Positions 42,812 through 63,545 of a DNA stretch of 64,000 nucleotides are shown here, piece after piece. Made by a program: the position numbers and the translations under genes. The stretch is from Bradyrhizobium sp. AZCC 2262. GTDB lineage: Bacteria > Pseudomonadota > Alphaproteobacteria > Rhizobiales > Xanthobacteraceae. Where the stretch lies: the NCBI RefSeq assembly GCF_036924535.1, contig NZ_JAZHRT010000001.1, positions 2,294,001-2,358,000 on the forward strand. Direction: 5' to 3'. Every line of letters starts with the position of its first letter. Within the stretch, counting starts at the first letter, position 1. Below the pieces are notes generated by a model. That model searched no databases. It saw only the letters and a list, made by a program, of their open reading frames with translations, and was not told where the DNA came from.

Positions 42812-44194
42812 CTAGATCGGAACATAACCGGGATTGAGGGGACTGAAGTCCTGCTGCGTCAGCACGGTGCTGCGGTATTCTGGCGCCTTGAGGTCGACGT
42901 CGACGAGCTCATGCACAGCGCCGCCATGCAGAAGGCGCAGCACCTCGCTCAAGGCGAGCGTCGCGGCGACGGCGCCGACGAACGGCGCGCCGACGGCTTT
43001 GCCGGCGAGTAGCGTTACACCACAGCGATCGAGCGCTCCGCTCGCGAGCATGCTCTTGTACGCGGGGCGGTCCTCGACCTGATCGACGGCCTGCGCGCTG
43101 CGCCAGATCTGCGACGCCGACCGCGACGCCGGAAGCGTATGCAGGCGGATCGCTCGAAAGTCCCGGTGCCCGCGGCCCAGCCCCGCCTCCACCACGAAGT
43201 CGAATCCGACTTGATCGAGTGCCTGGCGTCCGGCGCCGTTGTCGAGCCCGCACAGGGCGACGGCAGGCTCATCGTCCTGGCGCCGGAACGAAGCGTCGAA
43301 GAAGCGCTCGTGGATCACGGTCGAAAAGCCCCGGCGCTCGGCCCAAGCCGCCATGGCGCGCGTCTTCTTGATGTTGATGAGCGTGGAGTCGCTCAAGATC
43401 GAGGTGCTCTCGGTCGAGGGCGTGATGACGTCGATGTCCTGCAGGATCAGCCTCAAGTCTTGCGGGCGGGCGAAGGGCAGGAGCCCGAGTGCCCAAAGAT
43501 AGGCCTGGCCAAGATGGCCAAGGCCGATGAGCCACAGCCGCGTGGGCAAGAGCGAGAGCGTCGGCTCGGTGACGGTGGTGCTAAGCCAGTCACACGCGGG
43601 CGCAGGATCCCAGAGCGACAGACCCAGAGCACGGCGTCCCGCGATGCCCACGTGGCCGGAGACATAAAGGTGGCCGGAGACATAAAGAAAGGCTTCACTC
43701 ACGGCGAGCGCGGCGGCGAGCATCGGCGCCAGCGCCATGACGGGCGCCGGCACGGGTGCCGCCTCGGCTGGTGCCGGAACGATCCCGCCGCGCCAGCCGG
43801 CGAACACGGTACGCACATGAAACGGCGCGCGCCGCGCGGACGGCGCGCCGCCGATCTCGATCACCGGCGTGGCGACTGCCGGTTCCCCGATGCTGCCGCC
43901 AAGTCCCACGATCGCTTCGGCGAGCGTGGCGCCGAACGGAAGAGGGACGGCCAGCGGTGTCTCGGGCAGCGGTGCCACGCTCACGCCGCCCAGAAAGACG
44001 CGCCGCGCGAGTACGACGGCGGTCAGGAGGGCTGCTTGGTGATGCCGGTCTCGTGCGGCCTCCTCGCTAATACGCAGCGCAAGGCGATATCCGGCGAAGA
44101 GCGCTTCGGCTTCGGCGATGCTTGCGGCGGCGCCGCTGTCGAGCGCTTGCTTGACCAAGCGGTGCAGCTTGTCGGCGGCGGTGAATGCGGTCAT
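42812..44194 (-). CDS. E1-like ThiF-fold adenylating enzyme of a ubiquitin-like system
   Basis: A 460-residue protein that should activate the Ubl of this operon by adenylating its C terminus with ATP. The Rossmann motif is RLWLIGLGHLG (GLGHLG, residues 224-229), followed by LQDIDVITPSTESTSIL and KKTRAMA, typical for ThiF/E1 folds. A conserved-looking Cys391 lies in ALDRCGVTLLAGKAVGAPFVGA and is a candidate thioester Cys. The N-terminal 200 residues are an extra helical domain. The gene is last in the operon Ubl-E2-JAB-E1 and starts 7 bases after the JAB gene. An 18-bp tandem duplication at 43652-43687 doubles the LYVSGH hexapeptide before the Rossmann part. This gene set corresponds to the Bil/Bub class of bacterial ubiquitin-like antiviral systems. 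Confidence 0.82.
   Translation of the reverse strand: MTAFTAADKLHRLVKQALDSGAAASIAEAEALFAGYRLALRISEEAARDRHHQAALLTAVVLARRVFLGGVSVAPLPETPLAVPLPFGATLAEAIVGLGGSIGEPAVATPVIEIGGAPSARRAPFHVRTVFAGWRGGIVPAPAEAAPVPAPVMALAPMLAAALAVSEAFLYVSGHLYVSGHVGIAGRRALGLSLWDPAPACDWLSTTVTEPTLSLLPTRLWLIGLGHLGQAYLWALGLLPFARPQDLRLILQDIDVITPSTESTSILSDSTLINIKKTRAMAAWAERRGFSTVIHERFFDASFRRQDDEPAVALCGLDNGAGRQALDQVGFDFVVEAGLGRGHRDFRAIRLHTLPASRSASQIWRSAQAVDQVEDRPAYKSMLASGALDRCGVTLLAGKAVGAPFVGAVAATLALSEVLRLLHGGAVHELVDVDLKAPEYRSTVLTQQDFSPLNPGYVPI
43652..43687. repeat. 18-bp tandem duplication inside the E1-like gene
   Basis: Two exact copies of an 18-bp unit (43652-43669 and 43670-43687) follow each other. Because 18 is divisible by three the frame is kept and the hexapeptide LYVSGH is doubled in the protein. 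It looks recent, as the copies are identical. Confidence 0.85.
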
Positions 44195-44201
44195 GGCGGC
44201 C

Positions 44202-44720
44202 TCACAGTCCGATGTGGAAGAAGATGCGACGGGCGGCGGCCGGCACGGTGTCCCAGCGCTTGCCGCCGAGATAGCGGTAGATGCCGACCGATTCCTGCGG
44301 CACCGGCGGCCGCGCGAAATTCGGCAGGATGAATGCGATGTGTCCGGCGCGCGAGATCATCGGGTGATCGCGATCGGAGCTGCTCTGCCCCGCGCCGCCG
44401 GGATGCACGTGCACGTCGGCGACGACGCTTATGCCGCGCTGCTTGCAGATGTCCCAGAGCGTCCCGAAAGACCGGCCGTCGAAATGCACGATGCCGGTGT
44501 CGAGCGCGTGCGGGTCGAGGTCGTCGTAGAGGATGAAGTCGGTGATGCGGGCGCGGCCGTCCGCGTGGTCGCCCAGCAGGAACGCGCCGCTCTCGCGGGT
44601 CGCGTTGCGGCCGCGTTCGCGCAGCCTCGCGCACAGGCGCCGCCACAGAAACCACGAGCAGGAGATCTCATGCCGCGGCGCCCACAGGCGGGCAATAATC
44701 TGCGCAATTGAGAAGTTCAT
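44202..44720 (-). CDS. JAB/JAMM-domain metallopeptidase (deubiquitinase-like)
   Basis: A 172-residue zinc peptidase. The JAMM motif is complete: Glu43 in [10 protein letters not shown], His104 and His106 in DVHVHPGG, Ser115 and Asp118 in the SSSDRD segment. In ubiquitin-like operons such enzymes trim the Ubl or remove it from targets. The start at 44720 lies inside the preceding E2-like gene, 53 bases before its stop, in another frame, so the two are translationally coupled. A long alternative frame upstream would only read antisense-like sequence in the E2 region. It is the third gene of the Ubl operon. Confidence 0.85.
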
Positions 44721-45141
44721 GAACAAGCTCCAGGTACTGATTGATGCCGGCGGCGGGTCGCCAGATTTTCGAGGGCAGCTCGTGCCGCCAGTTGTCGTGA
44801 CCGACGATGCTTTCGCGATCGCAGGGTAGGTAGAGCGCGGTGCCGCCTTTCCAGTCGGGACGGAACACCGTGCTGAGCCGCCCGCCCTTGCTGCGCGGCC
44901 AGCGCGCGACGGGCAGGATCGTGTTCTTCTCAGGATCCCACGGTCCGCCGGTCGGCGGTTGCTGCGGGTACCCGGCGCAGTTGAAGCGCAGGACATAGGC
45001 GCGGCCGTCGGCCGCGGTGACGGCGATCAGCACGTGCGGCCAGGCGATGCCGACGAGATGCCAGCGGCCTTCCGCCTGCGCGAGGCGGAAGGCGGGCTTT
45101 CCGATATCGGCCCGGAAAGCCCGCTCATCCGGGAGACTCAT
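44668..45141 (-). CDS. E2-like ubiquitin-conjugating-fold protein
   Basis: A 157-residue protein starting [10 protein letters not shown] with GGAG upstream. The segment [19 protein letters not shown] resembles the E2 region before the active site, and [26 protein letters not shown] holds the probable catalytic Cys107 and a downstream His. The C-terminal helix [14 protein letters not shown] matches the last E2 helix. It lies between the Ubl (11 bases upstream) and the JAB gene (53-base overlap). It should receive the Ubl from the E1-like protein and pass it to a target. Assignment rests on pattern and operon context together. Confidence 0.8.
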
Positions 45142-45152
45142 CACGCCGCTCC

Positions 45153-45644
45153 CTAGCCGTTGACGCGCTCGTTGGGGACGAGGTCGAAGGCGATCTTGCA
45201 CGCCGGGCAGGACGCGATCGTGCCGAGGTGCGTGCCCGGATCCGGCCGGTCCTTGGTGCCAGCGATCTGCAGCACGTGCTCGCCGGCCTCCTGCGGCGTC
45301 ATGCCGAACTTGCGCTCGGCTGCCCAGGTCTTGACCCGCGCCACGGTCGTGCCGGGACCGAAGGCATGGTGCACCGTCTCGCCGTTGAAGGTGACGGCAG
45401 CCTCCACGTGGCGGCAGCGGTGCAGATGGGCCTTGATGCCGGAGTGGCCGGCGTGGTCGCGGAGCAGGCAGCTCTCATCGACTGGCTCGTCGCGGTCTTC
45501 GAGGTAGATCAGGGTCTCCTTGTCGAGACCGTGCTTCTCGATGATCGCGATCTTGATGGCGGCGAAGCTGTGATCCGGGGCGGCTTCGAAATGCGCGATC
45601 TCGCGGATTCCCTCACCCTGGTAGAAGATGTCGATTGAAGTCAT
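45153..45644 (-). CDS. Ubiquitin-like protein with two beta-grasp domains
   Basis: A 163-residue protein in two halves (about 1-75 and 78-163), each with the length and strand pattern of a beta-grasp domain; the second reads [29 protein letters not shown] and resembles bacterial multiubiquitin domains. It ends NERVNG, with a single C-terminal Gly exposed without processing, ready for adenylation. AGGAG lies 8 bases before ATG 45644; a GTG three codons earlier overlaps the ribosome site. It is the first gene of the operon, 62 bases from the shared promoter element. A two-domain modifier is also the form of the Bil (ISG15-like) systems. Confidence 0.78.
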
Positions 45645-45705
45645 GTGCAGCACTCCTTGCTGGGATCAGGAGTGCGGCCCCTTTGCCATCTCCGTCCCTT
45701 CAAGA

Positions 45706-45737
45706 GGTGATCGGAAAATGCAGGGGGGACCCGGAAA
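45706..45737 (-). promoter_or_regulatory. Shared promoter-like element, copy 1 (Ubl operon)
   Basis: On the plus strand it reads GGTGATCG (45706-45713), 15 bases, ACCCGGAAA (45729-45737); on the transcribed direction it is TTTCCGGGT-N15-CGATCACC. It lies 62 bases before the ATG of the Ubl gene and 50 bases after the end of the helicase gene. Two more copies with identical spacing occur at 50651 and 55669. Confidence 0.75.
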
Positions 45738-45754
45738 GGCGGAGCGCGACTTTT

Positions 45755-48700
45755 TTAAGAAAGGTCGAGCGGCCCCTTCGGCGCCGCTGGGCAAATGAAG
45801 AAATGCGGGCAGCGCGGGCAGGTGACCGGATTGATGTCGGTCGGGAAGTTCCCGGCGTTGATTCCGGAGAGCATGCCTTCCGTCTTGTCGCGCCGGTTGC
45901 CGAACTTCTCGTCGCTGATCTCGACGAACTCCATGACGCCGTCAGTCAGGTGCAAGGCTTCAACCACGAAGCCGTCTTTGAAGTGCACCTCGCCGGCGAG
46001 CCGGTAGAGTGTGTATTCAAGCCCGTCATACTCTTCCTTGGTCCGGTAACCGGTGCGCACACGCCGCAGAACGACCTTGCCGTCGAGCATTTCTGCGCGC
46101 TCATTCGGTTCGACCACGACGCGGCCGTTCGGGAAGTCAATCGCAAGCGGTTCCGACTTCTGGAAGCGGCGGCCAGCGCCAGAACGAACCAGCGCGCCGA
46201 CCAGGCGCGAGGCGAGCTTCCGGTAGTCCCCGGCAAAAGCATGGTCCTTCGGCCCGCGATCCCGCCAGATCGATTCGAAGGCCGCTTCGGCGTCGGCCTC
46301 GGCGGGGTCGCCCTCAAGGCGCGCCTGCGACATCCAGCGGATCAGCTCATAAAGACAGTCATGCGTGCGCGCGAAGGCCGTCGCCTTGCGTGCGCCGCCC
46401 AGTCCAAGGACGTGCGTGTAGAAGAAGCGGCGCGGGCATTTTTGGTAAAGCTCAAGCCGCCGATCGGAGAGGATCCAATCCGGTCCAAAGGTGATTTCGA
46501 TGGGCTGTGGCCGCGGGGCATCGGGCGGCAAGGGGACGGTCGGCGGAGAAGCCGTCTCGTGCACCAACCGCAACAACGGCTTCGTCAGAAGCTTGGATGA
46601 AGAGCGCTTGTCGCCGTTTGCGTAAAAGCGCGTCTGGTAGAGCCGTAAATACGTGCGCGCGCGCGACATCACCACGAAGAAAAGACATTCTTCTTCCATG
46701 GCGTGGGAACGCTTGGCATCATCCGAAACGCTGCCTTCCGCGCCTGCGATGAGCCCAACCGGGGGCGGGCAGCGTTGACCCGTGTAAGAAGTCGGGAAGC
46801 TCCGCGTTGCAAGGCCGGGCACGTGGACCGCCTCGAACTCAAGGCCTTTACTGCCGTGCACGGTCATTAGCCGGACCGCATTCATGTGGAGGGCAGGGGC
46901 GGGAACTTGGCGCAGGTCGCGCTCTTCTGCGAGCAGCACAAGCTGGCGGACGCGATCAAGGGCGCGCTGAATCGGAAAGCCAAACCCGACCGGGCTGTGA
47001 TCACGCAGGAAATTCAGGAATTGCCAGACCGCCACGTTGCGCATCCGCGCCGGAACCGCGGTGGCGCCCGCCATGGTGCGACCGATATCGGTGCGATCGA
47101 GCAGATAGGCCGTAAGGAAATCCCATGGCTGGCTTTGTGGGACGAGTCCCTTCAAGTCAGCGGTGAGCCGCCGGAAACCGTTGCCGGCCTCCGCTGACAG
47201 GCCGGGCAGGTTGGCGAGCTCGTCGACACGCTCCACCGAGCGCTTTCGTTCATCGCGCAAGTGAATAAGAGCCGCGTGAATGTCCTGAAGCGGAATGCCG
47301 TAACGCGGCAAGGCTCCTACGCGAACGAGCGCGTCGCCAAACGGGTCCACAGCGAGACTCATCAGCGCCAAGAGGTCGCGTATTTCGTCGCGCTCGAACA
47401 GGCTTCCCAAATGCAGAACCGGAATATTGCGTGCCTCAAGAGCGGCGGCGATTTCATTCAGGCGTCGGTTGGAACGGCAAAGAACCGCCTGGTCCCGCAG
47501 CCGCACGCCCTTCGTTTCCAATTCTCGGATCGCGGCGGCAATGCCTTCCTCTTCATCTTCATCGCGATCGAACTTGCGCAGATCGAACCCCTCCGGGCCC
47601 ACGCCGCGATCAGGGGTCAACGCGAGCGCCAGCATGTCTTTGGACGCGCCCATGTCCTTCGCGAAAGCCGTGAACGCATCGATAACCTGTTGGGTCGAGC
47701 GGTAGCTGATCCCGAGCTGATCGATGTCGGCTCTTGGAAACAATTCGGCCTTGAAACTCGCCATGTTGACGGAGGAGGCGCCACGAAAGCGGTAGATGGA
47801 TTGCCGCGCGTCACCCACGACCCACAAGCGCTTACCGTCGCCAGCAATGGCTTTCACCAGGCGCACGCTCGCCCGGTTCACGTCCTGATATTCATCGACG
47901 AGAACATGGCGGTGGCGCAACTGAACGGCCGCTTGGATCGCCTTGTTGTTTTCCAGGAGCCGTGTCGGCCCCATGATCAAGTCGCCGAAATCTACGGCCT
48001 TATGATCGGCCTTGGCGCGCTCATAACGTTCGTAGACAGCGGCGATCTCAAGACACTTCATCGCGGCGATCTGCTTCTCTTCGTCCTCGCCGGCGTCGTC
48101 TTCCATCTTCTTCGCGAGGGCGAGATAGCCTTTGTCGTCGTATAGCTCGTCCTTGGCGCGAGAGATCGCGCTCAAAATCTCTTTCAAGATCAGAGCGGGG
48201 TCCCAAAGATTGCGATAATAGACCAGTGGCAGGGTCGGCAGGATTTCTTCCAGGACCGCAATCGCATCGCTGCGATCGAACAGAGCCGGGTCCGGCGGAA
48301 GCTTGAACTCCTCATAATGTCGGCGAACGAGATCGAGCCCGAAAGCATGGAATGTGCCGATCCAAATCTTCGGAGCCTTGTCTGGCGCAGCAGCACTAAC
48401 CCGTTCGGCTAATTCACCGGCGGCACGGTTTGAGAAGGTCAGAACAAGGATGGACGCGGGATCGACACCCTCCTCAAGCAAAGAGAGGATGCGCTTGACC
48501 AGTGTCTTCGTTTTGCCCGTTCCCGGACCGGCTTGGAGCTGAAACGGCGTGCCGCGATGTGCCGCCGCGCGATTTTGCGCCGGGTCCGGCCGAGACGGAC
48601 GGGCCAGGGGGCTGTCGGATTCTTCATCTGTGGGGGGAGGCGGCAGAAGGATCACATCTAGGATTTGCTGACGCACGAGCGGCACCGGCAAATCGAGCTG

Positions 48701-49183
48701 CTTGGCGATGTCGGACGCGCTCAGGGCTTGGTCGACGAACATCCGCCGCGCGAGCGATCGGGGGAATAGAAACGCTCGCGCAAACACATTGGCCTGCAGC
48801 TCCCGGCGCTCGTGCGCGCCGTAGTCCTCAACACGTTGCAGGCCGACCGGCGCGGCTTCCATTGAACGCGAGGGATCCACGTCCTCGGCGCTGCAAGCGA
48901 CGGACCCGGCATGGATGCATTCATGCCCAATCTCGTGCGCGACAACGAGCGCGCGCTGCGATTCATTGCCAATGTCTTCGGCGAATATCGTACCGCTTTG
49001 ATCGTCGAAGACGGCGCGCGCGCCTTTGAGCGCGGGATCGCCCGTCGGAAGCCAAGTCAATTCAAGCTTGAGATGCTTGATTGCGGCATTGACCAGCTCC
49101 ATAGGCTTTCTGGGCGTACCGTCGCCCGCCACCTGATGGTGCAAGTCTTCCGCAGCCTTCCGAATGGGTTCGAACGAATCCAT
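45755..49183 (-). CDS. ImmA/IrrE peptidase-UvrD helicase-RecB-like fusion
   Basis: A 1142-residue protein. Residues 1-180 are an ImmA/IrrE-type zinc peptidase: VVAHEIGHECIH with HEIGH at 83-87 and ELQANVFARAFLFP with Glu128 as third ligand. A UvrD-type SF1 helicase follows, with Walker A AGPGTGKT at 218-225, DEYQDVNRA and VMSRARTYLRL. The C-terminal part has the Fe-S cysteine layout of AddB/Cas4-type nucleases: one Cys in YQKCPRRFFY near 914 and three in the final CPRCPHFFICP. The expected nuclease core D-x-K appears as RRVRTG, so the nuclease may be inactive. It starts 3 bases after the gene at 49187 and is the last gene of the sigma operon. Confidence 0.85.
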   Translation of the reverse strand: MDSFEPIRKAAEDLHHQVAGDGTPRKPMELVNAAIKHLKLELTWLPTGDPALKGARAVFDDQSGTIFAEDIGNESQRALVVAHEIGHECIHAGSVACSAEDVDPSRSMEAAPVGLQRVEDYGAHERRELQANVFARAFLFPRSLARRMFVDQALSASDIAKQLDLPVPLVRQQILDVILLPPPPTDEESDSPLARPSRPDPAQNRAAAHRGTPFQLQAGPGTGKTKTLVKRILSLLEEGVDPASILVLTFSNRAAGELAERVSAAAPDKAPKIWIGTFHAFGLDLVRRHYEEFKLPPDPALFDRSDAIAVLEEILPTLPLVYYRNLWDPALILKEILSAISRAKDELYDDKGYLALAKKMEDDAGEDEEKQIAAMKCLEIAAVYERYERAKADHKAVDFGDLIMGPTRLLENNKAIQAAVQLRHRHVLVDEYQDVNRASVRLVKAIAGDGKRLWVVGDARQSIYRFRGASSVNMASFKAELFPRADIDQLGISYRSTQQVIDAFTAFAKDMGASKDMLALALTPDRGVGPEGFDLRKFDRDEDEEEGIAAAIRELETKGVRLRDQAVLCRSNRRLNEIAAALEARNIPVLHLGSLFERDEIRDLLALMSLAVDPFGDALVRVGALPRYGIPLQDIHAALIHLRDERKRSVERVDELANLPGLSAEAGNGFRRLTADLKGLVPQSQPWDFLTAYLLDRTDIGRTMAGATAVPARMRNVAVWQFLNFLRDHSPVGFGFPIQRALDRVRQLVLLAEERDLRQVPAPALHMNAVRLMTVHGSKGLEFEAVHVPGLATRSFPTSYTGQRCPPPVGLIAGAEGSVSDDAKRSHAMEEECLFFVVMSRARTYLRLYQTRFYANGDKRSSSKLLTKPLLRLVHETASPPTVPLPPDAPRPQPIEITFGPDWILSDRRLELYQKCPRRFFYTHVLGLGGARKATAFARTHDCLYELIRWMSQARLEGDPAEADAEAAFESIWRDRGPKDHAFAGDYRKLASRLVGALVRSGAGRRFQKSEPLAIDFPNGRVVVEPNERAEMLDGKVVLRRVRTGYRTKEEYDGLEYTLYRLAGEVHFKDGFVVEALHLTDGVMEFVEISDEKFGNRRDKTEGMLSGINAGNFPTDINPVTCPRCPHFFICPAAPKGPLDLS

Positions 49184-49186
49184 TAT

Positions 49187-49843
49187 CTAGTCCTGAAACG
49201 ACAGCAACCGGCGTTGCTGTTCTTCGCTTAATCCAGATGTCTTCACCGCTTCTTCGAAGCTTTGTCTTGCCGTTGCAGCGGGCTTTCCTTCCGCTTTGTA
49301 AAGTTGGCGGCCGGCTGCGACGGACTCTTGTGGCGCATAGAGGTGCGCAACCATTGCTTCTGTATCCTCATCCATCTCCTGCGCGAGATGCCGGCAATAT
49401 GCTTTTGGAATCGAAATAGGTTCTATCGTCCTATCCCGCAGCTTCGAAAGGAAGGCGTTGTTGACGTCGAGCTGTGATACGAGCGCACGAAATCCTTGCC
49501 GGTCGAGCGCTGCGAAGGGATTTTCCACGGAAGCTGTCGCGGCGCGCGCGGGCGGGGTCGCCGCGCGCGCCTGCCGGCGTTCGAAGAGCTGGTTTTCAAA
49601 CTGGCTCATGACGCGCGACACCACGTCGCTGATCGCGTCGGCATCGGCGGGGACATCTTCCTCGTCACTCCGGTGCATGAGCGAGTCGATCGCAAGTTCA
49701 ATGGCGAATTCGGTGAGCGCGTCGGCATACTTCGGGTAGAGGCGCGCGAATTCGTCGAGCAGTTCGGCGTCCGGAACAGCCTTCGCCAGTGACATGGCGT
49801 ACATGGCGTCTCGCAGGGACGTTTGGGTGGCGGTCATGATCAT
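49187..49843 (-). CDS. Unknown acidic protein coupled to the sigma-like factor
   Basis: A 218-residue protein without recognised domain. It begins MIMTATQTSLRDAMYAMSLAKAVPDAELLDEFARLYPKYADALTEFAIELA, helical and acidic, and has a middle linker rich in Ala and Arg (RRQARAATPPARAATA). The C-terminal half (FRALVSQLDVNNAFLSKLRDRTIEPISIPKAYCRHLAQEM) has the helix spacing of a small adaptor or antitoxin. ATGA overlap with the sigma-like gene and a strong AAGGAGG show coupled translation. Position after a sigma gene makes an anti-sigma or adaptor role possible; nothing in the sequence proves it. Confidence 0.75.
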   Translation of the reverse strand: MIMTATQTSLRDAMYAMSLAKAVPDAELLDEFARLYPKYADALTEFAIELAIDSLMHRSDEEDVPADADAISDVVSRVMSQFENQLFERRQARAATPPARAATASVENPFAALDRQGFRALVSQLDVNNAFLSKLRDRTIEPISIPKAYCRHLAQEMDEDTEAMVAHLYAPQESVAAGRQLYKAEGKPAATARQSFEEAVKTSGLSEEQQRRLLSFQD

Positions 49844-50589
49844 AGGTCCTCCTTCATAGTCTTGAGCTGCTTGTCGGCGGCAGCGAGGCGGTAGCGAATC
49901 GTCCGCTTGTCCACCTTGCAAATCTTTGCGGTCTGTTCCTCGGTGTGCCCGATGATGCGGCGGAGGACGGCCGCCTCCTTTTGGTCGGCGGGCATGCGAT
50001 CCAGGGCGGCGATAACCTCGGGTAGATAAAGAGCATCTTCTTGCGACGGACCGATGCTCGCCATTCGGGACAACCGCGCCAGCATTTCCTCATCGAATGC
50101 GGCCTCGCCCTCGCCGTCGTCGGCTTCGGGCAGATCAGTCAGCTCCTTGCGCTCGGACAGCGCCTTGCGGACATGATCGATCCGAAGGAATCGCAACGCC
50201 CGTAGAAATTTGCATTCATAGAAGTCCAGTTCGTCCTCGTGCCCTTCTGTACCGTCTTGTGTGAACACCATCGCGAGATCGCTGAGAATCTCGTGCCGGA
50301 CCGACTCGGCGTCGCGCATCCGGCTGTCCGGCACCGTGCGCTCGAGATTGGCCTCGGCGCGTTTGAGGAGCTGCGGCATCAGCACCCTCGCGATACGGTC
50401 CTCGCCGCGGCGGATGGCATCCCGGAGAAGATGGACGAGACATTCCGACGGCAGGAAATCGCCGGATTGCGGATTCGTCTCGCGCGCGCGCCGGGAAAGG
50501 GTGGCCCAATCCTGGGTCAGCGCGATGTCGATCTTCCGTTCGATACCCGGCGGGCGGGCCAGGTTCTTCTTCAACAACGGACGTGCCAT
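49840..50589 (-). CDS. Sigma-70-like (ECF-type) regulator of the island
   Basis: A 249-residue protein from the ATG at 50589 (AAAGGGG site). The middle part FYECKFLRALRFLRIDHVRKAL is like region 2 of alternative sigma factors. The C-terminal part (LPEVIAALDRMPADQKEAAVLRRIIGHTEEQTAKICKVDKRTIRYRLAAADKQLK) is a region-4-like helix-turn-helix. Its own gene lies 62 bases from one of the three promoter-like elements, and the other two copies precede the Ubl and YhaON operons. It is therefore the best candidate for the factor that reads them. A one-component activator with a sigma-4-type fold is the alternative. Confidence 0.75.
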   Translation of the reverse strand: MARPLLKKNLARPPGIERKIDIALTQDWATLSRRARETNPQSGDFLPSECLVHLLRDAIRRGEDRIARVLMPQLLKRAEANLERTVPDSRMRDAESVRHEILSDLAMVFTQDGTEGHEDELDFYECKFLRALRFLRIDHVRKALSERKELTDLPEADDGEGEAAFDEEMLARLSRMASIGPSQEDALYLPEVIAALDRMPADQKEAAVLRRIIGHTEEQTAKICKVDKRTIRYRLAAADKQLKTMKEDL

Positions 50590-50650
50590 ATCGCCCCTTT
50601 CAGCAGCGGGTTTTACCGGGCGTCCAATTCGTTCGGCCCACCCTTCACTA

Positions 50651-50682
50651 GGTGATCGAAAAAAAGAGGGGGTACCCGGAAA
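50651..50682 (-). promoter_or_regulatory. Shared promoter-like element, copy 2 (sigma operon)
   Basis: GGTGATCG (50651-50658), 15 bases, ACCCGGAAA (50674-50682), read toward the sigma-like gene start 62 bases away. The identical distance as for the Ubl operon supports a promoter at a fixed place before the start codon, and suggests autoregulation. Confidence 0.75.
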
Positions 50683-50774
50683 ACTGAACCTGAAAATTTT
50701 TGAAGCCAAATTTTGTCAAGCAATATCAATATGTTAGATGGAGTGATAGCATAAACTGTGGGAATCCCGGGCCG

Positions 50775-53700
50775 TTATGCGGCCTGGGAACGTGGAGGCA
50801 GCGGGCTTGCGGCCACCGGCAGCGTAACGCCGCTGATCGGCGCGCCCAAGGCCTTTCGCGCGACCTCCAGCAGGTGCTCGTGGTGGGTGAAGAACAAGAC
50901 TTGCGTCTTCCTGGCGAGCTCGCCCAAGACGCGGAAGCCGGCTGCCGCGCGCTTGTCGTCGAAGTTGATGAACAGGTCGTCCGCGATGAACGGCATGGGC
51001 TCGGCATGGTCGAGATAATCCTCGATCGCGGCGATCCGGAGCGCGAGGTAGAGCTGGTCCGCAGTGCCAGTGCTCATGCCGCCAACCGGGATCTGCCGGC
51101 CGTCGTGACGCAGGCCGGCGAGCTGCATGTTGTCGTGTTCGTCGAATTCGAGCTGCAGCGTTTGGAAAGACCCGCAAGTGAGGATAGCGAACAGCTCGCC
51201 CGCGCGCTTGAGCATGGGCGCCTGCTTCTCACGCCGATAGCGATCGATCGCCCACTGCAACAATGCGACGGCGGAGCGAAGGCGCACATACTGCTCGGCG
51301 ATCTCGGTCATCTCGGCAAGCGCCGCCTGCCGATCCGCGGCGTCCCTCGCTGCCCGGTCGTCACCGCCGATGGCCTCGAAGGTCTGGCGCGCGGTGTTGC
51401 GGGTCTCGCGCGCTTCCATCAGGCGATTGCGCAATTCCTGCACTTCTTCGGTGACCGTCTGGTCCTTGGCCGCGATGGCGTCGAGGTCGATGCCCGAGCA
51501 CTCGGTTGCGAGCTCCGCAACCGAAAGGCCATCTCCATCCTGCGTCAGCGCGGTCGTGAGCCGATCAAGCTCGGCGCTGAACTTGCGCATCTCGTCGGAG
51601 CGCTGAACTGCAATCCGCAATTCGTCGGTCGATGCGACACCGGCCTTCTGCTGGAGCTGTGTAATGGTTTCGCGTGCTTCGCGGCTCGATTCACGGCAGT
51701 CATCGATCTTCTCTTGCAAGCTGGCGATGTCGGAATCCTTCGCGGACCTCAGGCCCCGCACGCGTGCTGCGCCTGCAGCCTCGCGATCGAGTTCCAAGAC
51801 AGCTTCCTCGGGATCAGTGCCATTCAGGCGCGGTGCGATGGCTTGCGCTAAGGCCACCACGTCGGCCTCGAACGCTTTCACATCGCGCTCGATCTTTTCG
51901 ATGCGCTCATGCCGCAGTTCGTTGATCCGGACTGCCGCCTCGCGCATGTCATCGATGGCGTTGATCTGCGCTTCGGCCGTCTCAGGCGTCGCCATTGCGG
52001 CGAGTTGCAGCGCTTTCAGGGCGGCTTGCCACGCGCTCGTCCACTCCGTCCACTCAGCCTCGGCCTTTTCCAAATCCTTGCGTTTGCGCACAACCACGCC
52101 CGTCGCCTTGCGGTGTGCCTCATTGAGGTCGCGGGCCGTCTTGGCAGCGTTTTCGTGCCGGCGCTCCTGCGCCGCCGCGGTCTCGATGATGAGATGGAGC
52201 GGCTGGGCAGCAAGAGAAGTTGTGGAAACCCCCAACGTCTCAAGCTCGTCTAAGACCAGACGTTTGCCTTCGTCCTCGCGCTGTTGCCATCCTCCCGTAT
52301 GCAGCTCAGCCGCCGAGAGCCGCGCGTTCACGTCCAGGATCTCGGACCGCGTGCGCAGCCACTCGATCATCACGTCCGGATCTTGCGGCCTGATGGAGCT
52401 GCCCGACCACAGCGCGGACCAGGCGGCATCCAGGGTTGTGCGCTCTTGCGCCAACGCCTGTTCTTCCAGGCCCAAGGATTCCAGCAGGTCGTCCTGCTCG
52501 CTGATCTGGCGGCCAATGACCGCAAGCTGCGCGGCAGCGTCGGCGTGCTCGAAGCGCCGATCAGCAGCCGAGTCTGCACCACGCATTGCGGCTTCGAACT
52601 CCTGCGCCAACGCATCGGGCGGACCGAAGGCGTCCATCTCGTCTTCGGAAACCGCAACACGTTCTACATGGCGGCGGCGGATGATTGACCAACCGGTGTC
52701 ACGCCGGCCGCGCAAGCGTTCAAGCTCGTCGGCCGACACGACGTGTTTGTCAGCGATGATGCGTTCATAGGCCCTCTGGTGCCGGACGCGCTCCTGCTCG
52801 GCATTGCGGATCCGTTCGCGGCAGGTCCGCTGCCGCTGCTCCAGGCTTCGGCACGCGTCTCGGTGGGCCTCCACCGAAGCCCGCGGGGGAACCGGCGCCG
52901 ATTCCAGGACGGCAGAATCGGCGACTGCCGGCCGCAGGGCCTTCAGCAAGCGTGTAATTGCGGTCAGCGCCTCCTGCTCCTCGCGCTTCGAGTTGGCGAT
53001 CTGGCCGGCGATGTCGCCAAGTTCGCGCATGGCCTTGATCACTGTCGCGAGCTTCGAGACATCTGTCACCGGCCCATGGGCCTCGATTTCCGCCCCGATC
53101 TCGCCGAGCTTCTCCTCGGCTTCGGTCACGGCGTTCTTCGCATTCTCTACCGCGCCGGATTGCGCCCCGCGGCGGTTGAGCAAAGCGCGAAGGACCGCAA
53201 CCTTGGCTTTGGCGGGGATGCGCGCGATCAACTGATCGATATCGCCGCTCCATTCGAGCTCGCCGGCGAGGCGATTGAGGGTCGTTTCTGCCGCGGCCAA
53301 TTCCGCCCGCCGCTTGGGGAGATCGGCCTTCCCGGCGCGGACCTGGATGCGGCGATCACGGAGCTGCGCGATGTCTTCGGCACGTGCCAGCAGGGCTTCG
53401 TCGAAGATCAAGGCCGCGCATTCCGCCTCAAGCGCCGCGATTTGCTCGCTCAGGGTCGCGATGCGCGCCGTGGCGGCCGCTTCGTCCTTTGCGGCCTTCT
53501 CCAGAATCTTGGAAGCGTCTGCATCAAACGGGATGACCTCGCGGAGCGAGTCGATAGCGCTTTGAGTCTCGGCGCGCTTGCGCACGTCGCGGCAAACCCG
53601 GCGGATGCGGTTGAGCTTGAGCAACTCCGCCGATTTGAGCTCGATTTCGCTTTCGATGACGCCATAAGCATCGTTGGCGGTCTCGAACGCGCTCTTGAGT

Positions 53701-54329
53701 GCCTGCCACTTGGTCGTCGTCACGACATCGTCGCGCATCGAGGCTTCGGCAGCCTTCAGACGTTCCTCTGCCTGGAAATACTTTCGGTGCGCCGCGCGGC
53801 GCGAGGCCCAAAGCGCGTCGGCTTCGGCCTCCATGGTCTTGAGCGTCTCGCGCAGGCCCATAATCCCGGCGCTCGCCGAGAACAACATCTGGCCGACATC
53901 CTCTTGTGCTTGCAGAATTTCCTTGCCGCCCTGGCGCAGGCGCTCGTGATCGAGGCTGAACATCCGCGTGTAAAATCGGCGATCGGCGCCGGCAAGAAAC
54001 GGCGCGAGCGCGCCCTCGCCCGAAGGGATGGGCGTGTCATTGTCGCCCAGCAACGTGTCTTTGTTGCCCTTGCGGCGGCGCATCTTAAGCGTATCGCTCC
54101 CCTTCTCCAGAAGCGCGCCTACCCGCATGGCGCTGTACTCGTGCAGGAAGTTACGTGAAGAGTTGGCCGGGATGCCGAAGAGCAGGTCTTCGACGCCGTT
54201 CATCGCCGTCGACTTTCCGGCTTCATTCTCGCCGAGCAGCATCTGAAAATCCTGCTTGCCGGCCGGCAAAGCGATGATGGCGTCCGTGAAGTGACCGTAT
54301 CGAAGCAAATCGAGCTGACGGATACGCAT
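50775..54329 (-). CDS. YhaN/SbcC-like SMC-type ATPase
   Basis: A 1184-residue protein. The N-terminal half-ATPase starts MRIRQLDLLRYGHFTDAIIALPAGKQDF and has Walker A LLGENEAGKST (residues 32-41). Long coiled coils fill the middle. The C-terminal half has the ABC signature GGMSTGTADQLYLALRIA, Walker B PFIADDLFINFDDKR and the H-loop FFTHHEH. This is the YhaN branch of SbcC/Rad50 proteins. It starts 2 bases after the YhaO-like gene, and the two should form a DNA-end processing complex. The start at 54329 is set by the family N terminus; the frame extends upstream only as antisense of its partner gene. Confidence 0.9.
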   Translation of the reverse strand: MRIRQLDLLRYGHFTDAIIALPAGKQDFQMLLGENEAGKSTAMNGVEDLLFGIPANSSRNFLHEYSAMRVGALLEKGSDTLKMRRRKGNKDTLLGDNDTPIPSGEGALAPFLAGADRRFYTRMFSLDHERLRQGGKEILQAQEDVGQMLFSASAGIMGLRETLKTMEAEADALWASRRAAHRKYFQAEERLKAAEASMRDDVVTTTKWQALKSAFETANDAYGVIESEIELKSAELLKLNRIRRVCRDVRKRAETQSAIDSLREVIPFDADASKILEKAAKDEAAATARIATLSEQIAALEAECAALIFDEALLARAEDIAQLRDRRIQVRAGKADLPKRRAELAAAETTLNRLAGELEWSGDIDQLIARIPAKAKVAVLRALLNRRGAQSGAVENAKNAVTEAEEKLGEIGAEIEAHGPVTDVSKLATVIKAMRELGDIAGQIANSKREEQEALTAITRLLKALRPAVADSAVLESAPVPPRASVEAHRDACRSLEQRQRTCRERIRNAEQERVRHQRAYERIIADKHVVSADELERLRGRRDTGWSIIRRRHVERVAVSEDEMDAFGPPDALAQEFEAAMRGADSAADRRFEHADAAAQLAVIGRQISEQDDLLESLGLEEQALAQERTTLDAAWSALWSGSSIRPQDPDVMIEWLRTRSEILDVNARLSAAELHTGGWQQREDEGKRLVLDELETLGVSTTSLAAQPLHLIIETAAAQERRHENAAKTARDLNEAHRKATGVVVRKRKDLEKAEAEWTEWTSAWQAALKALQLAAMATPETAEAQINAIDDMREAAVRINELRHERIEKIERDVKAFEADVVALAQAIAPRLNGTDPEEAVLELDREAAGAARVRGLRSAKDSDIASLQEKIDDCRESSREARETITQLQQKAGVASTDELRIAVQRSDEMRKFSAELDRLTTALTQDGDGLSVAELATECSGIDLDAIAAKDQTVTEEVQELRNRLMEARETRNTARQTFEAIGGDDRAARDAADRQAALAEMTEIAEQYVRLRSAVALLQWAIDRYRREKQAPMLKRAGELFAILTCGSFQTLQLEFDEHDNMQLAGLRHDGRQIPVGGMSTGTADQLYLALRIAAIEDYLDHAEPMPFIADDLFINFDDKRAAAGFRVLGELARKTQVLFFTHHEHLLEVARKALGAPISGVTLPVAASPLPPRSQAA

Positions 54330-54331
54330 GA

Positions 54332-55597
54332 TTACACCTTCTCCGCTGTGAGACGTGCGCTGAGATACGCACCGCCATGGGCGATCAAGCTTGCGATGTT
54401 GCCGTCGATGGCGGCTTTGAGCACTGCGTCGTGCGCATCCGAACGGATGTCGTGAGGCAGCTTGCGGACGAGATCGCCAAGATCCGTCGCGAGCCGCGCC
54501 TGCAGCTCGGCGTCGCTGCCAGCGCTCTCGATGATGCGCTGAAGGTCGCCCAGCGCGTCCTTGCGTGCGGCTGCGGTTTCGGGGCCCGCAGTTGCAACGA
54601 CGAGGCGCTCGATCCACGCGACCTCCTCGCCCAAGCCCAGAGCTGCGGCCTTCGCCTCAGCAAGGAGATGATCTGCTGACGCGAGCAGTTCGCCGTGCAG
54701 TTCGGTCTGCCCGGTCAGTTCGATTCTGCAGGCGAGCAGACGCCCTTGCGCGTCGCGCTCGACGGCTTCTTCGATGGCCTGCCGAACACGATCGACGGCG
54801 TCGGCGACAGCGCTGCACTGTTCCACCGGAACCGGCAAATGGATCCAGCGCACGCAATCAACATGGAGCGGCGAAATCTCCCCGATCTGGCCGTCCTCGA
54901 CCGTAACCAGCGAAGCGCCTTTCGGGCCGCTTTCCCGGATGTGGCGGCCCTGCAGATTGCCGCAGAACACGACATGGGGCCGCTCGTGGAGGACTGCGGC
55001 TTGGTGCACATGCGCGAGCGCCCAATAGTCGTAGCCCTTGTTGATCAGGTCTTCGATGGCGCATGGCGCATAGTTCGCGTGTCCCGGCATGCCGCCCAAG
55101 CCGGTGTGCAAGACACCGATGTTGAAGCAACCGGCAACCGGCGGCGGATAGGCGGGAACCAGATTGTCCGTGATGTCGCGCTGCCGGAAGCTCTGGCCGT
55201 GCAGGGCTACATTGAGATGTTGAAGGCGGAAGGTTTCGGCCTTGCGCGCCGAAAACACGCTGACATTGGTCGGCAGCGTGAGCTTGCGGGTGATCTGGCT
55301 TTCGGCGTCGTGATTGCCATGAAGCAGGAAGACGGGGATCTTAGCCTGTGCCAACCGGCCCATCTGTTTTACGAAGAAGAGGCCGGTTTGGTAGTCGCGC
55401 CAATCGCCGTCATAGAGATCGCCGGCGATGATGACGAAATTGACCTCGTCCTCGATCGCCTGGCTGATAAGGTTCTCGAACGCCGTTCGCGTAGCGGTCC
55501 GAATCCGTCCGGCTGCCGCGTCTTGCTGTCCGGAAAGTCCTTTCAGGGGGCTGTCGAGATGAATGTCGCCGGTGTGGATAAAGCGAAATGATTGCAA
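54332..55597 (-). CDS. YhaO/SbcD-like metallophosphoesterase (Mre11-like nuclease)
   Basis: A 421-residue protein of the calcineurin-like phosphoesterase family. Metal motifs are FIHTGDIHLD (residues 7-15), IIAGDLYDGDW, LLHGNHDAES and ALAHVHQAAV. Nuclease partner of the ATPase encoded next. The likely start is a TTG at 55597, nine bases after GGAGG and right before QSFRFIHTGDIH; an ATG at 55666 would start almost inside the promoter-like element. The TTG start may limit expression. Confidence 0.88.
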   Translation of the reverse strand: MQSFRFIHTGDIHLDSPLKGLSGQQDAAAGRIRTATRTAFENLISQAIEDEVNFVIIAGDLYDGDWRDYQTGLFFVKQMGRLAQAKIPVFLLHGNHDAESQITRKLTLPTNVSVFSARKAETFRLQHLNVALHGQSFRQRDITDNLVPAYPPPVAGCFNIGVLHTGLGGMPGHANYAPCAIEDLINKGYDYWALAHVHQAAVLHERPHVVFCGNLQGRHIRESGPKGASLVTVEDGQIGEISPLHVDCVRWIHLPVPVEQCSAVADAVDRVRQAIEEAVERDAQGRLLACRIELTGQTELHGELLASADHLLAEAKAAALGLGEEVAWIERLVVATAGPETAAARKDALGDLQRIIESAGSDAELQARLATDLGDLVRKLPHDIRSDAHDAVLKAAIDGNIASLIAHGGAYLSARLTAEKV

Positions 55598-55668
55598 GAC
55601 AGAAATCCTCCAATTCGATCCAAGCAGTGACGGCAGAGTCATCTGCTTCTGCAGCTGATCTCTCACTG

Positions 55669-55700
55669 GGTGATCGGAAATCAGAGGGGGGACCCGGAAA
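55669..55700 (-). promoter_or_regulatory. Shared promoter-like element, copy 3 (YhaON operon)
   Basis: GGTGATCG (55669-55676), 15 bases, ACCCGGAAA (55692-55700). Distance to the TTG start of the YhaO-like gene is 72 bases. The three copies also share a run of five or six G in the right half of the spacer. The remaining bases to 56006 show no gene. Confidence 0.75.
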
Positions 55701-56006
55701 GCCAGACTCAGCTATTTTTTATTGATAACCGACTTCGAACATAGAGTGAACGATCTAGTGGCGTCAAAGCCCCGATTCCCCAATATCTTGTGGGCAGGCA
55801 AGCAGCCTTGAGACCACGTTTTTGGCGGCATTTCCGGCGGCGAAGGATGAACAGCCGTTCGAACCGGTGGGACGTCAAACCGGCCCTCCCGAACGTCTCG
55901 ACCCCGAGCTGTTCTGAATCGGAGTTTTGCATATGGCGCCTGCGCGCCAGTTGAGAGGGTTTTCTGGGTCTGTCGCTCGTCCGTGATCTGCGAGACCATC
56001 TGAAGC

Positions 56007-56243
56007 GTGGATATAGTGGCGATCGGCCGCGTGGTGTTGACCAACCGGGAGCACATCGTCGCACTTGAGCCGATGGAAAATGGGCCTCGCAGGCACGCTG
56101 CTGCGTATCCCTACAAAGTCCGCTCGGAAGCCGACTATTTCGATGTGATCCAGGACGTTATGGTTTCGAAGGATACACGAGTCAGGCTCACCGGAGCACT
56201 TCCGTTGATGACGGTCTTAATCGATTATATCGTACCGTCATGA
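56007..56243 (+). pseudogene. Partial second copy of a Ku gene
   Basis: The frame reads VAIGRVVLTNREHIVALEPME, then YPYKVRSEADYFDVIQDVMVSKD, which matches the middle of the Ku protein encoded at 58555-59488 nearly residue by residue over about 53 codons. Upstream beta-barrel sequence and the downstream C-terminal part are missing. The start codon at 56007 is fortuitous. This is a diverged fragment of another ku gene, useful because it shows the expected frame (IQDV) at the site where the main copy is frameshifted. Confidence 0.75.
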
Positions 56244-58554: not shown

Positions 58555-59488
58555 ATGGTCCCCCGCGCGAACTGGAAAGGCTTCCTGCGTCTTTCCCTCG
58601 TCACCTGTTCGGTCGCGCTCTATCCGGCCACGTCGGAATCCGAAAAGGTCTCGTTCAACCAGCTCAACCGGAAGACCGGCCACCGGATCAAGTACGCCAA
58701 GGTAGACGCGGATACCGGCGAGGAGGTCGCCAACGAGGACATCGTCAAGGGCTACAAGGTCGACACCGACACCGTCATCGAGGTGACGAAGGAGGAACTC
58801 GAGAACGTCGCGCTGGAATCGACGCGAACCATCGAGATCGACGAGTTCGTCGACCGCAGCGAGATCGACCCGAGGTATCTGATCCGTCCCTACTACTTGG
58901 TGCCCGACGGGAAAGTTGGCCACGACGCCTTTGCCGTCATCCGCGAAACCATCCGTGAGATGAACAAGGTCGCCATCGGACGGGTGGTGCTGACCAACCG
59001 TGAGCACATCATCGCCCTCGAGCCCATGGACAAAGGCCTGATGGGAACGCTGCTGCGCTATCCTTACGAGGTGCGTTCTGCGAACGAGTATTTCGACGAT
59101 ATTCAGGGACGTCAAAGTCACCAAGGACATGCTCGATCTTGCCAGGCACATCGTCAATCAGAAGGCAGGTCATTTCGAGCCGGACAAGTTCGAAGACCAG
59201 TACGAAACCGCCCTCATCGATCTCATCAACCAGAAGCGCGCTGGTAAGCCGATCACCGCGAAGGAGCGGCCGCGCGGTGAGAACGTGGTCGACCTGATGG
59301 ACGCGCTGCGCAAAAGCATTGGAGGAGGCGCGGCAGCCGCGACAGAAGCGCCGAAGAAGTCAGCTAAGAAGCCGCGCAAGGCGGCGGCCGGGCAGAAGGA
59401 AATGCTTATGCCGATCGCTGGCAAGAAGCCAGCGAAGGAGGCCGCGTCGAAGAAGCCGGCGGCCAAACCTCAGCGAAAGTCGGCTTGA
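58555..59488 (+). pseudogene. ku: Ku end-joining protein gene with +1 frameshift
   Basis: Ku binds DNA ends in bacterial non-homologous end joining, usually with LigD. The front part (MVPRANWKGFLRLSLVTCSVALYPA to YPYEVRSANEYFDDIQ) is intact Ku barrel. At the GGG run 59106-59108 one extra G shifts the frame; without it the text would be DIQDVKVTKDMLDLARHIV, as the partial copy at 56007 also shows. The C-terminal part continues to 59488 and ends with a Lys/Ala-rich tail (KKSAKKPRKAAAGQK). Full length would be about 310 residues. The defect may be real or a base-calling error. No ligD is in the window. Confidence 0.85.
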
Positions 59489-62500: not shown

Positions 62501-63545
62501 GTGGAAACGATCGTTCGCATCGGTTTGGACACGTCAAAGAGCGTATTTCAGTTGCATGGCGTTGACGAGAACGAGCAGCCGGTTTTGCGGCGCAAGTTGA
62601 GGCGCGGCCAGGTTCTGGCGTTCTTTAGTCGTTTGCCGCCTGCGCTTGTCGCGCTGGAAGCTTGCGGAGCATCGCACTATTGGGCGCGGGAGCTGCGATC
62701 ACTCGGGCATGAGGTGGCGATGATCCCGCCGCAATATGTCAAGCCGTATGTGCAGCGCGGGAAATCCGACGCTGCGGATGCAGAGGCGATTTGCGAGGCG
62801 GCGAGTCGGCCGAAACTGCGCAAGAACTTTGTGCCGATAAAAAGTCCCGAGCAGCAGGGCGCACAGATGCTGACGCGCGTGCGCACCCAGTTCATCGGTA
62901 GGCGCACCCAGCTCGCCAATTCGATCCGCGGATACGCCGCAGAGTTCGGCTTCACCGCGCCCAGGGGGCTTTCGCGGCTTCAGCAATTGCTGGTCGATAT
63001 TCGGGCTGATGCGACAGTCCCCGATTTGGCGATGGAGTTGGTGGAAGCATTGGCGACAGAACTGGCGCGCGTCGATGGTCAAGATCGCCAAACTCGACAA
63101 GAAGCTCATGCAGCTGCACCGGAGTAACGAGATGAGCCGACGACTGGCGACTATTCCGGGGGTGGGTCCGATCGGCGCGACGCTGCTGTCAATCAAGGTC
63201 GTGGATGCACGCGGGTTCAAGTCGGCAAGAAACTTTGCCGCTTGGCTTGGCCTGACGCCAAAGAATCACTCGACGGCCGGAAAGAATCGGCTCGGCGTGA
63301 TCACCCGCGCCGGCGACGGCATGTTACGAGCCGTTTTGGTGGCTGGCGCGACCGCTGTGATCGCAGATATGCGACGACGCGGGAGTCGCTCTTGGCCCTG
63401 GCTGAAAGACATGATCGCGCGCAAGCCGCCGAAGCTGGTGGCCATAGCGTTGGCAAACAAGCTGGCACGGATCGCCTGGAAACTGATGGTCAGCGGCGGG
63501 CTGTATCGGCCTGTTAGCGCCATGCCGATGCCGACGCCGGCATAG
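62501..63545 (+). mobile_element. IS110-family transposase, frameshifted
   Basis: The front frame (GTG start at 62501, AAGGAG upstream) has the DEDD RuvC-like domain: RIGLDTSKSVFQLHG, LVALEACGASHYWARELRSLGH and RGKSDAADAEAICEAA. The Transposase_20 part (IPGVGPIGATLLSIKV, NFAAWLGLTPKNHSTAGKNRLG, RAGDGMLRAVLVAGA) continues in another frame from about 63075. One extra G in the GG at 63077-63078 explains the shift; joined, the protein would be about 348 residues, normal for IS110. The element lacks terminal inverted repeats, as usual for the family. Flanking non-coding sequence (62213-62500, 63546 onward) may include the bridge RNA. Confidence 0.85.

What the first reader, a model, noticed from the sequence alone, without database searches (positions are those of the whole stretch)
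45644..55700. Three defence-type operons share one promoter-like element, with a sigma-like gene in the set
GGTGATCG-N15-ACCCGGAAA occurs at 45706, 50651 and 55669, always with exactly 15 bases between the halves and a G run in the spacer. Each copy lies upstream of an operon start (62, 62 and 72 bases from the chosen start codons): the Ubl-conjugation operon, the sigma/unknown/ImmA-UvrD operon, and the YhaO-YhaN operon. The middle operon encodes a sigma-70-like protein. The simplest reading is a private sigma factor that switches on protein modification, a helicase and an SbcCD-like nuclease together. I do not know a described system of this composition.
Basis: partly seen in the sequence, partly recalled or inferred. 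Interest (0 to 1): 0.92.

Follow-up and report, generated by a model that had tools for sequence, protein, structure and literature searches.

The report
Private sigma switch for ubiquitin-like immunity
A bacterial defence island carries its own RNA-polymerase sigma factor, and a matching promoter sits in front of the sigma gene and of a ubiquitin-like antiviral operon in relative after relative, which suggests that this immune system is turned on by a dedicated transcription switch.

Summary
The three elements are exact only here in the 9.48 Mb genome. The Ubl operon is BilABCD, a known antiphage system. The sigma-like protein has a clear sigma region 4 and models as an ECF-type sigma factor. 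In 35 of 35 clade I loci (window included), TTCCGG-N16/17-[CT]GAT[TC] lies 55-66 bp before sigma; in 28 of 28 it lies 55-68 bp before bilA; before yhaO in 5 of 9. Other ORF starts: 0 of 444. Over 25 genomes a stricter form matched 46 times, 43 in the islands; reversed control 0.

The same sigma / unknown / ImmA-UvrD cassette under other phylum labels precedes a different Ubl system (Multi_ubiq), with TT[TA]CCGG-N16-CGATT between them in 10 of 10. Three more divergent loci carry altered but matching promoter pairs. Seventeen Ubl loci without detected sigma lack the element.

Best reading: a dedicated sigma factor with an island-local immune regulon. How sigma is released is inferred: the ImmA/IrrE-type protease-helicase may destroy the "unknown" protein, a putative anti-sigma, on sensing DNA. 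No expression data. Nine searches of an open-licence library showed no description of it.

The parts
45706..45738 (-). Promoter-like element before bilA; on the minus strand CTTTCCGGGT-N15-CGATCACC; -35 core TTCCGG at 45731-45736, -10 core CGATCA at 45708-45713; A/T tract at about 45750-45757
50651..50682 (-). Promoter-like element before the sigma gene (predicted autoregulation); here TTTTCCGGGT, without the leading C
55669..55701 (-). Promoter-like element before yhaO-yhaN
49840..50589 (-). Sigma factor, 249 aa; Sigma70_r4_2 at residues 191-238; model resembles ECF sigma factors
49187..49843 (-). 'Unknown' protein; putative anti-sigma / HTH-like partner; an in-frame ATG overlaps the sigma stop (ATGA)
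45755..49183 (-). ImmA/IrrE-like peptidase (HEIGH at 83-87) fused to UvrD helicase and a RecB-like domain with four conserved Cys; nuclease motif looks degenerate
45156..45644 (-). bilA, ubiquitin-like protein, 163 aa
   Evidence: PDLC03844, 3.5e-62
44668..45141 (-). bilB, E2-like
   Evidence: PDLC03845, 2.5e-61; DUF7665
44202..44720 (-). bilC, JAB-like deconjugase
   Evidence: PDLC03846, 8.8e-68; Prok-JAB below cut-off
42812..44194 (-). bilD, E1-like
   Evidence: PDLC03847, 1.5e-168
50775..54329 (-). YhaN-like SMC/SbcC-type ATPase (AAA_27)
54332..55597 (-). YhaO-like SbcD/Mre11-type phosphoesterase (Metallophos)

Best explanation
The island carries a dedicated ECF-type sigma factor whose promoters lie in the island: its own operon (sigma, unknown, ImmA-UvrD), the BilABCD ubiquitin-like conjugation operon and, in this lineage, yhaO-yhaN. 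Sequence and comparison show the matched promoters, the sigma resemblance, the conserved cassette and the matching change of promoter pairs in divergent loci. Inferred steps: (1) RNA polymerase carrying this sigma reads TTCCGG / CGAT[TC]A. (2) At rest the sigma is held by the co-translated 'unknown' protein acting as an anti-sigma. (3) The ImmA/IrrE-like peptidase, fused to a DNA helicase and a RecB-like domain that looks catalytically dead, senses phage or damaged DNA and cleaves that anti-sigma. (4) Released sigma amplifies itself and switches on Ubl conjugation and the SbcCD-like nuclease together.
Confidence: 0.83

Rival explanations
1. The element is an operator bound by the HTH-like 'unknown' protein, as CapH binds its operators, and the sigma-like protein is secondary.
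For: One divergent unknown protein (L070) matches HTH_31 at 0.0019, below its cut-off, and the window protein's middle domain gives weak HTH-type fold matches. ImmA-type peptidases are known partners of HTH repressors (CapH+CapP, passages). The unknown protein is better conserved into L070 and L071 than sigma is.
Against: The element is two boxes 16-17 apart with an A/T block upstream, as a promoter is, and I see no palindrome in it (by eye). The spacer sequence is largely free and its length varies by one base, as in sigma promoters.
Confidence: 0.08
2. Sigma and promoters are as proposed, but the ImmA-UvrD protein is an effector made under sigma control, and sigma is released by another signal.
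For: L110 has sigma and the unknown protein without ImmA-UvrD. UvrD helicases occur in defence systems such as Gabija (GajB models are among its PADLOC matches). Pfam reports a PD-(D/E)XK domain.
Against: HEXXH and four Cys are invariant over 13 sequences of clades I-III, while the place where I expect the D-x-K motif (recalled) reads RRVRTG or alike, which fits a sensor better than a DNA-degrading effector.
Confidence: 0.35
3. The repeats are intergenic repeats or terminators shared by duplication inside the island, without regulatory meaning.
For: In the window the bilA and sigma copies also lie just after an upstream gene.
Against: Spacers and flanks have diverged while two boxes stay fixed; distance to the sigma start is fixed although the upstream gene varies; no terminator-like site lies on the three copies; divergent loci have divergent but matching pairs; sigma-less Ubl loci lack it.
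Confidence: 0.02

Closest known systems
Bil (BilABCD, bacterial ISG15-like antiphage system)
   Same: All four genes in the order A-B-C-D match the PADLOC Bil models over almost their full length.
   Different: The described Bil locus is, from recall, the four genes alone. Here sigma, unknown protein and helicase precede it and share its promoter type. Five sampled Bil loci show no sigma.
CapH+CapP, CapW/BrxR and CapK+CapS controllers of immune operons (PMC13373217, passages read)
   Same: Small regulatory cassettes next to Ubl, CBASS and other immune operons; an ImmA-type peptidase and a possible HTH-like partner recall CapP and CapH.
   Different: All three are repressor-based in that paper. 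Here the regulator is a sigma factor with its own promoters at up to three separate operons, and the peptidase is fused to a UvrD helicase.
ECF sigma / anti-sigma pairs
   Same: Sigma region 4, 16-17 spacer, autoregulation in clade I, co-translated neighbour.
   Different: The regulon is an immune island. TTCCGG / CGAT[TC]A is not a promoter motif I know (recall). Most structural matches begin at about residue 36-60 of the model, and Pfam recognises only region 4 above cut-off.
IrrE(PprI)-DdrO of Deinococcus (PMC10904395, listing and start of abstract only)
   Same: ImmA-type metalloprotease that releases transcription on DNA damage.
   Different: There the target is a repressor; here it would be an anti-sigma, and the protease carries its own helicase.
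YhaO-YhaN / SbcCD
   Same: Metallophos plus AAA_27 domains.
   Different: Placed under the island sigma promoter in part of clade I only.

Membership tests
Bil system | BilA, BilB, BilC, BilD adjacent and intact | tested here: met
   PADLOC E 3.5e-62, 2.5e-61, 8.8e-68, 1.5e-168, near full length
Bil system | Protects against phage by Ubl conjugation | not testable with these tools
   no wet-lab data
ECF-type sigma factor | Region 4 (-35 binding) domain | tested here: met
ECF-type sigma factor | Region 2 (-10 binding, core binding) domain | tested here: inconclusive
ECF-type sigma factor | Directs transcription from a cognate -35/-10 promoter | not testable with these tools
   Matched promoter motif in all testable clade I loci; activity not measured
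ECF sigma / anti-sigma pair | Anti-sigma that binds the sigma | not testable with these tools
   Unknown protein co-translated; fold search found no match
CapH+CapP | ImmA-type peptidase with HEXXH | tested here: met
   Peptidase_M78 27.4 bits against 22; HEXXH 13 of 13
CapH+CapP | HTH repressor cleaved by the peptidase, binding the operon's operator | tested here: inconclusive
   HTH_31 0.0019 in the L070 partner only; weak HTH-type matches in the window model; cleavage not testable
Multi_ubiq Ubl systems (clade II) | Multi_ubiq, DUF6791-ThiF E1, DUF6527 | tested here: met
   L059, L061, L053 by Pfam; by tblastn Multi_ubiq in 10 of 10 cassette loci, E1 and DUF6527 in 9 of 10 (not seen in L051)

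The most novel reading that the evidence does not exclude
Bacterial ubiquitin-like conjugation systems of at least two architectures, in genomes labelled Proteobacteria, Planctomycetes, Acidobacteria, Verrucomicrobia and Myxococcota, are driven by one family of dedicated sigma factors. A DNA-sensing protease-helicase destroys the anti-sigma, so phage or damaged DNA turns into a positive, self-amplifying transcription burst. The same promoter recruits neighbouring effectors (an SbcCD-like nuclease here, a caspase in Aquibium) into an immune regulon that travels on plasmids and islands.
Probability: 0.45. Interest if true: 0.93.

Novelty: new variant of a known kind. Interest (0 to 1): 0.86.

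Why it matters
The immune-operon controllers in the paper I could read (CapW, CapH+CapP, CapK+CapS) act through repression. A dedicated sigma factor would be the opposite logic: off by default, then switched on as a coordinated regulon. It gives Bil systems a likely trigger, it points to effectors from promoter sequence alone (the caspase in L027), and it offers natural sigma/promoter pairs that diverged together. A two-plasmid reporter in E. coli would test the core claim directly.

Tried and rejected
Rejected: intergenic repeat or terminator. Rejected: a genome-wide regulon; 3 of 46 strict matches lie outside the islands. L086 lies in an ABC-transporter gene and L087 between two other genes (by eye); G785:C23:31699 was not examined. 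Rejected: ProA (35938-41934) as a regulon member; the 877 bp before it hold only a 2-mismatch match, 592 bp from the start. Motif look-alikes inside sigma genes (for example 180 bp before the unknown gene in L026, L031, L038; also in L150) follow, I think, from a conserved peptide F/Y-R-...-A-I and were not counted. yhaO of L071 and the SbcCD-WYL-WGR operons of L015, L016, L044, L046 show no element. The scan of viral contigs found no relative of sigma. The fold of the unknown protein stayed open (low Z). L061 has a loose look-alike before sigma that I did not count.

Limits of the counts. 'Other ORFs 0 of 444' misses the L027 caspase because the ORF caller took an upstream start there. Distances run to the start of the tblastn match. 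Rows dropped before that count: L045 and L038 (same records as L015 and L018); L019 and L050-L061 were not in it (clade II or fragments). L019 and L050 have no strict element before the sigma hit; L060 is a 44-residue fragment. Sigma-less Bil loci L072/L116, L073, L111, L114, L115 come from random samples; the truncated BilD loci L074 and L075 were left out. Of the 12 sigma-less Multi_ubiq loci only five (L138, L141, L145, L147, L148) have a strong DUF6791-type E1; the others are more distant Ubl systems and weaker controls. A still more divergent sigma could have been missed in any of the 17, and only the clade I/II form of the element was sought there. The sigma profile contained L070, L071 and L110 themselves; one search repeats it without them. 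The clade II, III and IV elements were first seen by eye.

Literature: nine answered searches in an open-licence PMC library listed no report of a sigma factor or ImmA-UvrD cassette with Bil or Multi_ubiq; I saw listings and starts of abstracts, and subscription papers are mostly absent. PMC13373217: passages read. PMC10904395: listing and start of abstract. PMC1779556: listing only (0 occurrences of 'sigma factor' and 'uvrd'). Bil papers by Millman, Chambers and Hor: not read, named in PMC13373217.

Full report
What is there. The window lies in a 9.48 Mb single-contig genome. From right to left on the minus strand stand yhaO-yhaN, then sigma / unknown / ImmA-UvrD, then bilABCD, then a ProA-like antiphage gene. 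The three elements precede the first three groups. They are exact only there in the whole genome, and 100 dinucleotide shuffles of the window never gave three matches at up to 3 mismatches.

The genes. The Ubl operon matches all four PADLOC Bil models. The 249-aa sigma protein passes the Pfam cut-off for sigma region 4 only; weaker profile matches run over both sigma domains. Its predicted structure (mean pLDDT 76, pTM 0.57) is matched first by sigma factors, six of the first seven named ECF, though none at E below 0.001. Region 4 superposes at 0.8 A over 62 residues; SigK aligns over 145 residues spanning both domains at 5.4 A. The helicase protein starts with an ImmA/IrrE-type peptidase domain, goes on with UvrD, and ends in a RecB-like domain. 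Over 13 aligned sequences of clades I-III the HEXXH, the Walker A and four Cys positions (916, 1122, 1125, 1131) are invariant. Where I expect the nuclease D-x-K motif (motif recalled) the sequences read RRVRTG or alike, so I think the nuclease is dead, although Pfam still matches the domain. The unknown protein of the window has no family or fold match. One divergent relative matches an HTH model at 0.0019, in line with weak HTH-type structural matches to the window protein's middle domain.

Related loci. The sigma gene is rare: 4 of 397 genomes sampled from the order, this one included, at E 1e-10. Plasmids gave 4 records, all with sigma-unknown-helicase-BilABCD in the same order. A pattern-led scan of 84,980 species genomes gave 42 loci. 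Of 35 clade I loci (Alphaproteobacteria, one Paraburkholderia, the window; duplicates removed), 27 have the cassette and all four bil genes, five end with the contig before bil (L021, L029, L036, L037, L048), L046 shows only a piece of bilA, and L047 and L049 have a truncated or broken sigma gene without a recognised cassette. In the subset nearest the window (L017, L020-L025) yhaO-yhaN stands directly upstream.

The promoter. Of the clade I loci with 150 bp upstream, 35 of 35 sigma genes, 28 of 28 bilA genes and 5 of 9 yhaO genes have TTCCGG-N16/17-[CT]GAT[TC]; 0 of 444 other ORF starts have it, and 200 shuffles of the 63 sigma and bilA regions give a mean of 0.025. With CGAT alone the counts are 34 of 35 and 27 of 28; the odd one is L043. 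TTCCGG and GAT are fixed by the pattern, but the following A (65 of 68), the T two bases after TTCCGG (66 of 68) and the A/T block peaking at 93% some 15 bases upstream were free to vary. The spacer is 16 in 44 and 17 in 24 sites; sigma and bilA have the same spacer in 25 of the 28 loci where both were measured. A stricter pattern searched over 25 genomes (about 140 Mb) matched 46 times with 0 matches of the reversed control. Of these, 41 lie in the fetched islands and two more on separate contigs that prove to be bilA promoters. One of the 41, in Aquibium carbonis, lies 61 bp before a caspase-domain gene.

Other clades. Clade II (records titled Gemmata, Zavarzinella, Gemmataceae, Phycisphaerae, Terrimicrobiaceae, Acidobacteria, Myxococcus, Bosea, Aerophototrophica and a Proteobacterium) has the same three-gene cassette but then Multi_ubiq, with an E1 of DUF6791 and ThiF and DUF6527 in 9 of the 10 loci. 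L056 and L057 are close relatives under different phylum labels, so one label may be wrong. TT[TA]CCGG-N16-CGATT stands between helicase and Multi_ubiq in 10 of 10 (200 shuffles mean 0), and again in an eleventh cassette found later by its Multi_ubiq gene (L150). It is absent before sigma in 9 of 9 clade II loci with 300 bp. Clade III (L070, L071) has a sigma-like gene that tblastn did not find, with CTTCCG[GT]TTTTT...TTCGCT before both sigma and bilA. Clade IV (L110, Burkholderiales) has sigma and the unknown protein but no helicase, and a third paired element, at unequal distances from the two starts. Profiles built from clades I and II alone find the unknown proteins of L070, L071 and L110 at 8.7e-11, 3.2e-7 and 2.5e-7, and their sigmas at 0.003, 0.3 and 1.1e-6. 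Within-locus pairs agree at 26-28 of 34 positions, against a shuffle maximum of 21-23, in the six loci tested. In L043 both -10 boxes read TGATTA.

Negative controls. Five Bil loci without detected sigma (L072/L116, L073, L111, L114, L115) and twelve Multi_ubiq loci without it (L138-L149) have no such element before the Ubl operon; one match in L147 lies about 3.5 kb away. So the element follows the sigma gene, not the Ubl system. Of the BilD loci met by sampling, leaving out the two centre genomes and the truncated ones, 3 of 8 carry sigma (G765, G733, G863 with; G646, G410, G1318, G1303, G1024 without).

Mechanism. Shown by sequence: matched promoters, sigma resemblance, conserved cassette, and an ATG overlapping the sigma stop in frame with the next gene (17 of 22 by the match itself, 5 by eye). 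Inferred: sigma reads these promoters (about 0.9); the unknown protein is its anti-sigma (about 0.55); the ImmA-UvrD protein removes it on sensing DNA (about 0.45). The analogy is to CapH+CapP, whose protease is activated by ssDNA and cuts the repressor (PMC13373217, passages), and to PprI/IrrE (PMC10904395, listing).

Limits. No transcription, binding or phage data. Loci are related and counts are not independent; the motif was refined on the same loci. The literature library holds open-licence papers only.

Noticed in passing
35938-41934 (-): ProA-type antiphage gene (NF058533, 2095 bits) next to bilD, without the element; L036 also has a ProA-like gene before sigma.
   Followed up: partly
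58555-59488 (+) and about 55930-56200 (+): A Ku gene that by eye runs over two reading frames (first part matches Ku, 8.8e-50) and, by eye, a second Ku remnant beyond the start of yhaO; the Rhizobium plasmid locus L013 also has Ku genes about 14 kb from its cassette.
   Followed up: no
62501-63545 (+): By eye an IS110-type transposase in two frames on the right side of the window.
   Followed up: no
L015, L016, L044, L046; also L072: SbcCD-like ATPase and nuclease with WYL (and, except L072, WGR) genes stand beside the cassette, in L072 beside a Bil locus without sigma. A second kind of SMC-nuclease neighbour, without the element.
   Followed up: partly
L027:8245-9705: Caspase-domain protein (PF00656, 3.1e-41) with its own sigma-type promoter 61 bp upstream: a predicted extra effector.
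   Followed up: yes
L110:3664-4978 (-): Burkholderiales Bil locus with sigma and unknown protein but no ImmA-UvrD; promoter pair of a third type.
   Followed up: partly
L047, L049: Sigma gene appears truncated or broken behind an intact element, with no recognised cassette following in the stretch held.
   Followed up: no
L046: Only a piece of bilA and no bilB-D were found after a helicase match that spans 4.2 kb; the operon may be disrupted there.
   Followed up: no
G1391 (L056 and L150): One genome titled Acidobacteria carries two sigma cassettes, each before its own Multi_ubiq gene.
   Followed up: partly
45755-49183 (-), residues about 1030-1060: RecB-like domain keeps its Cys cluster but reads RRVRTG where a nuclease motif is expected.
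   Followed up: partly
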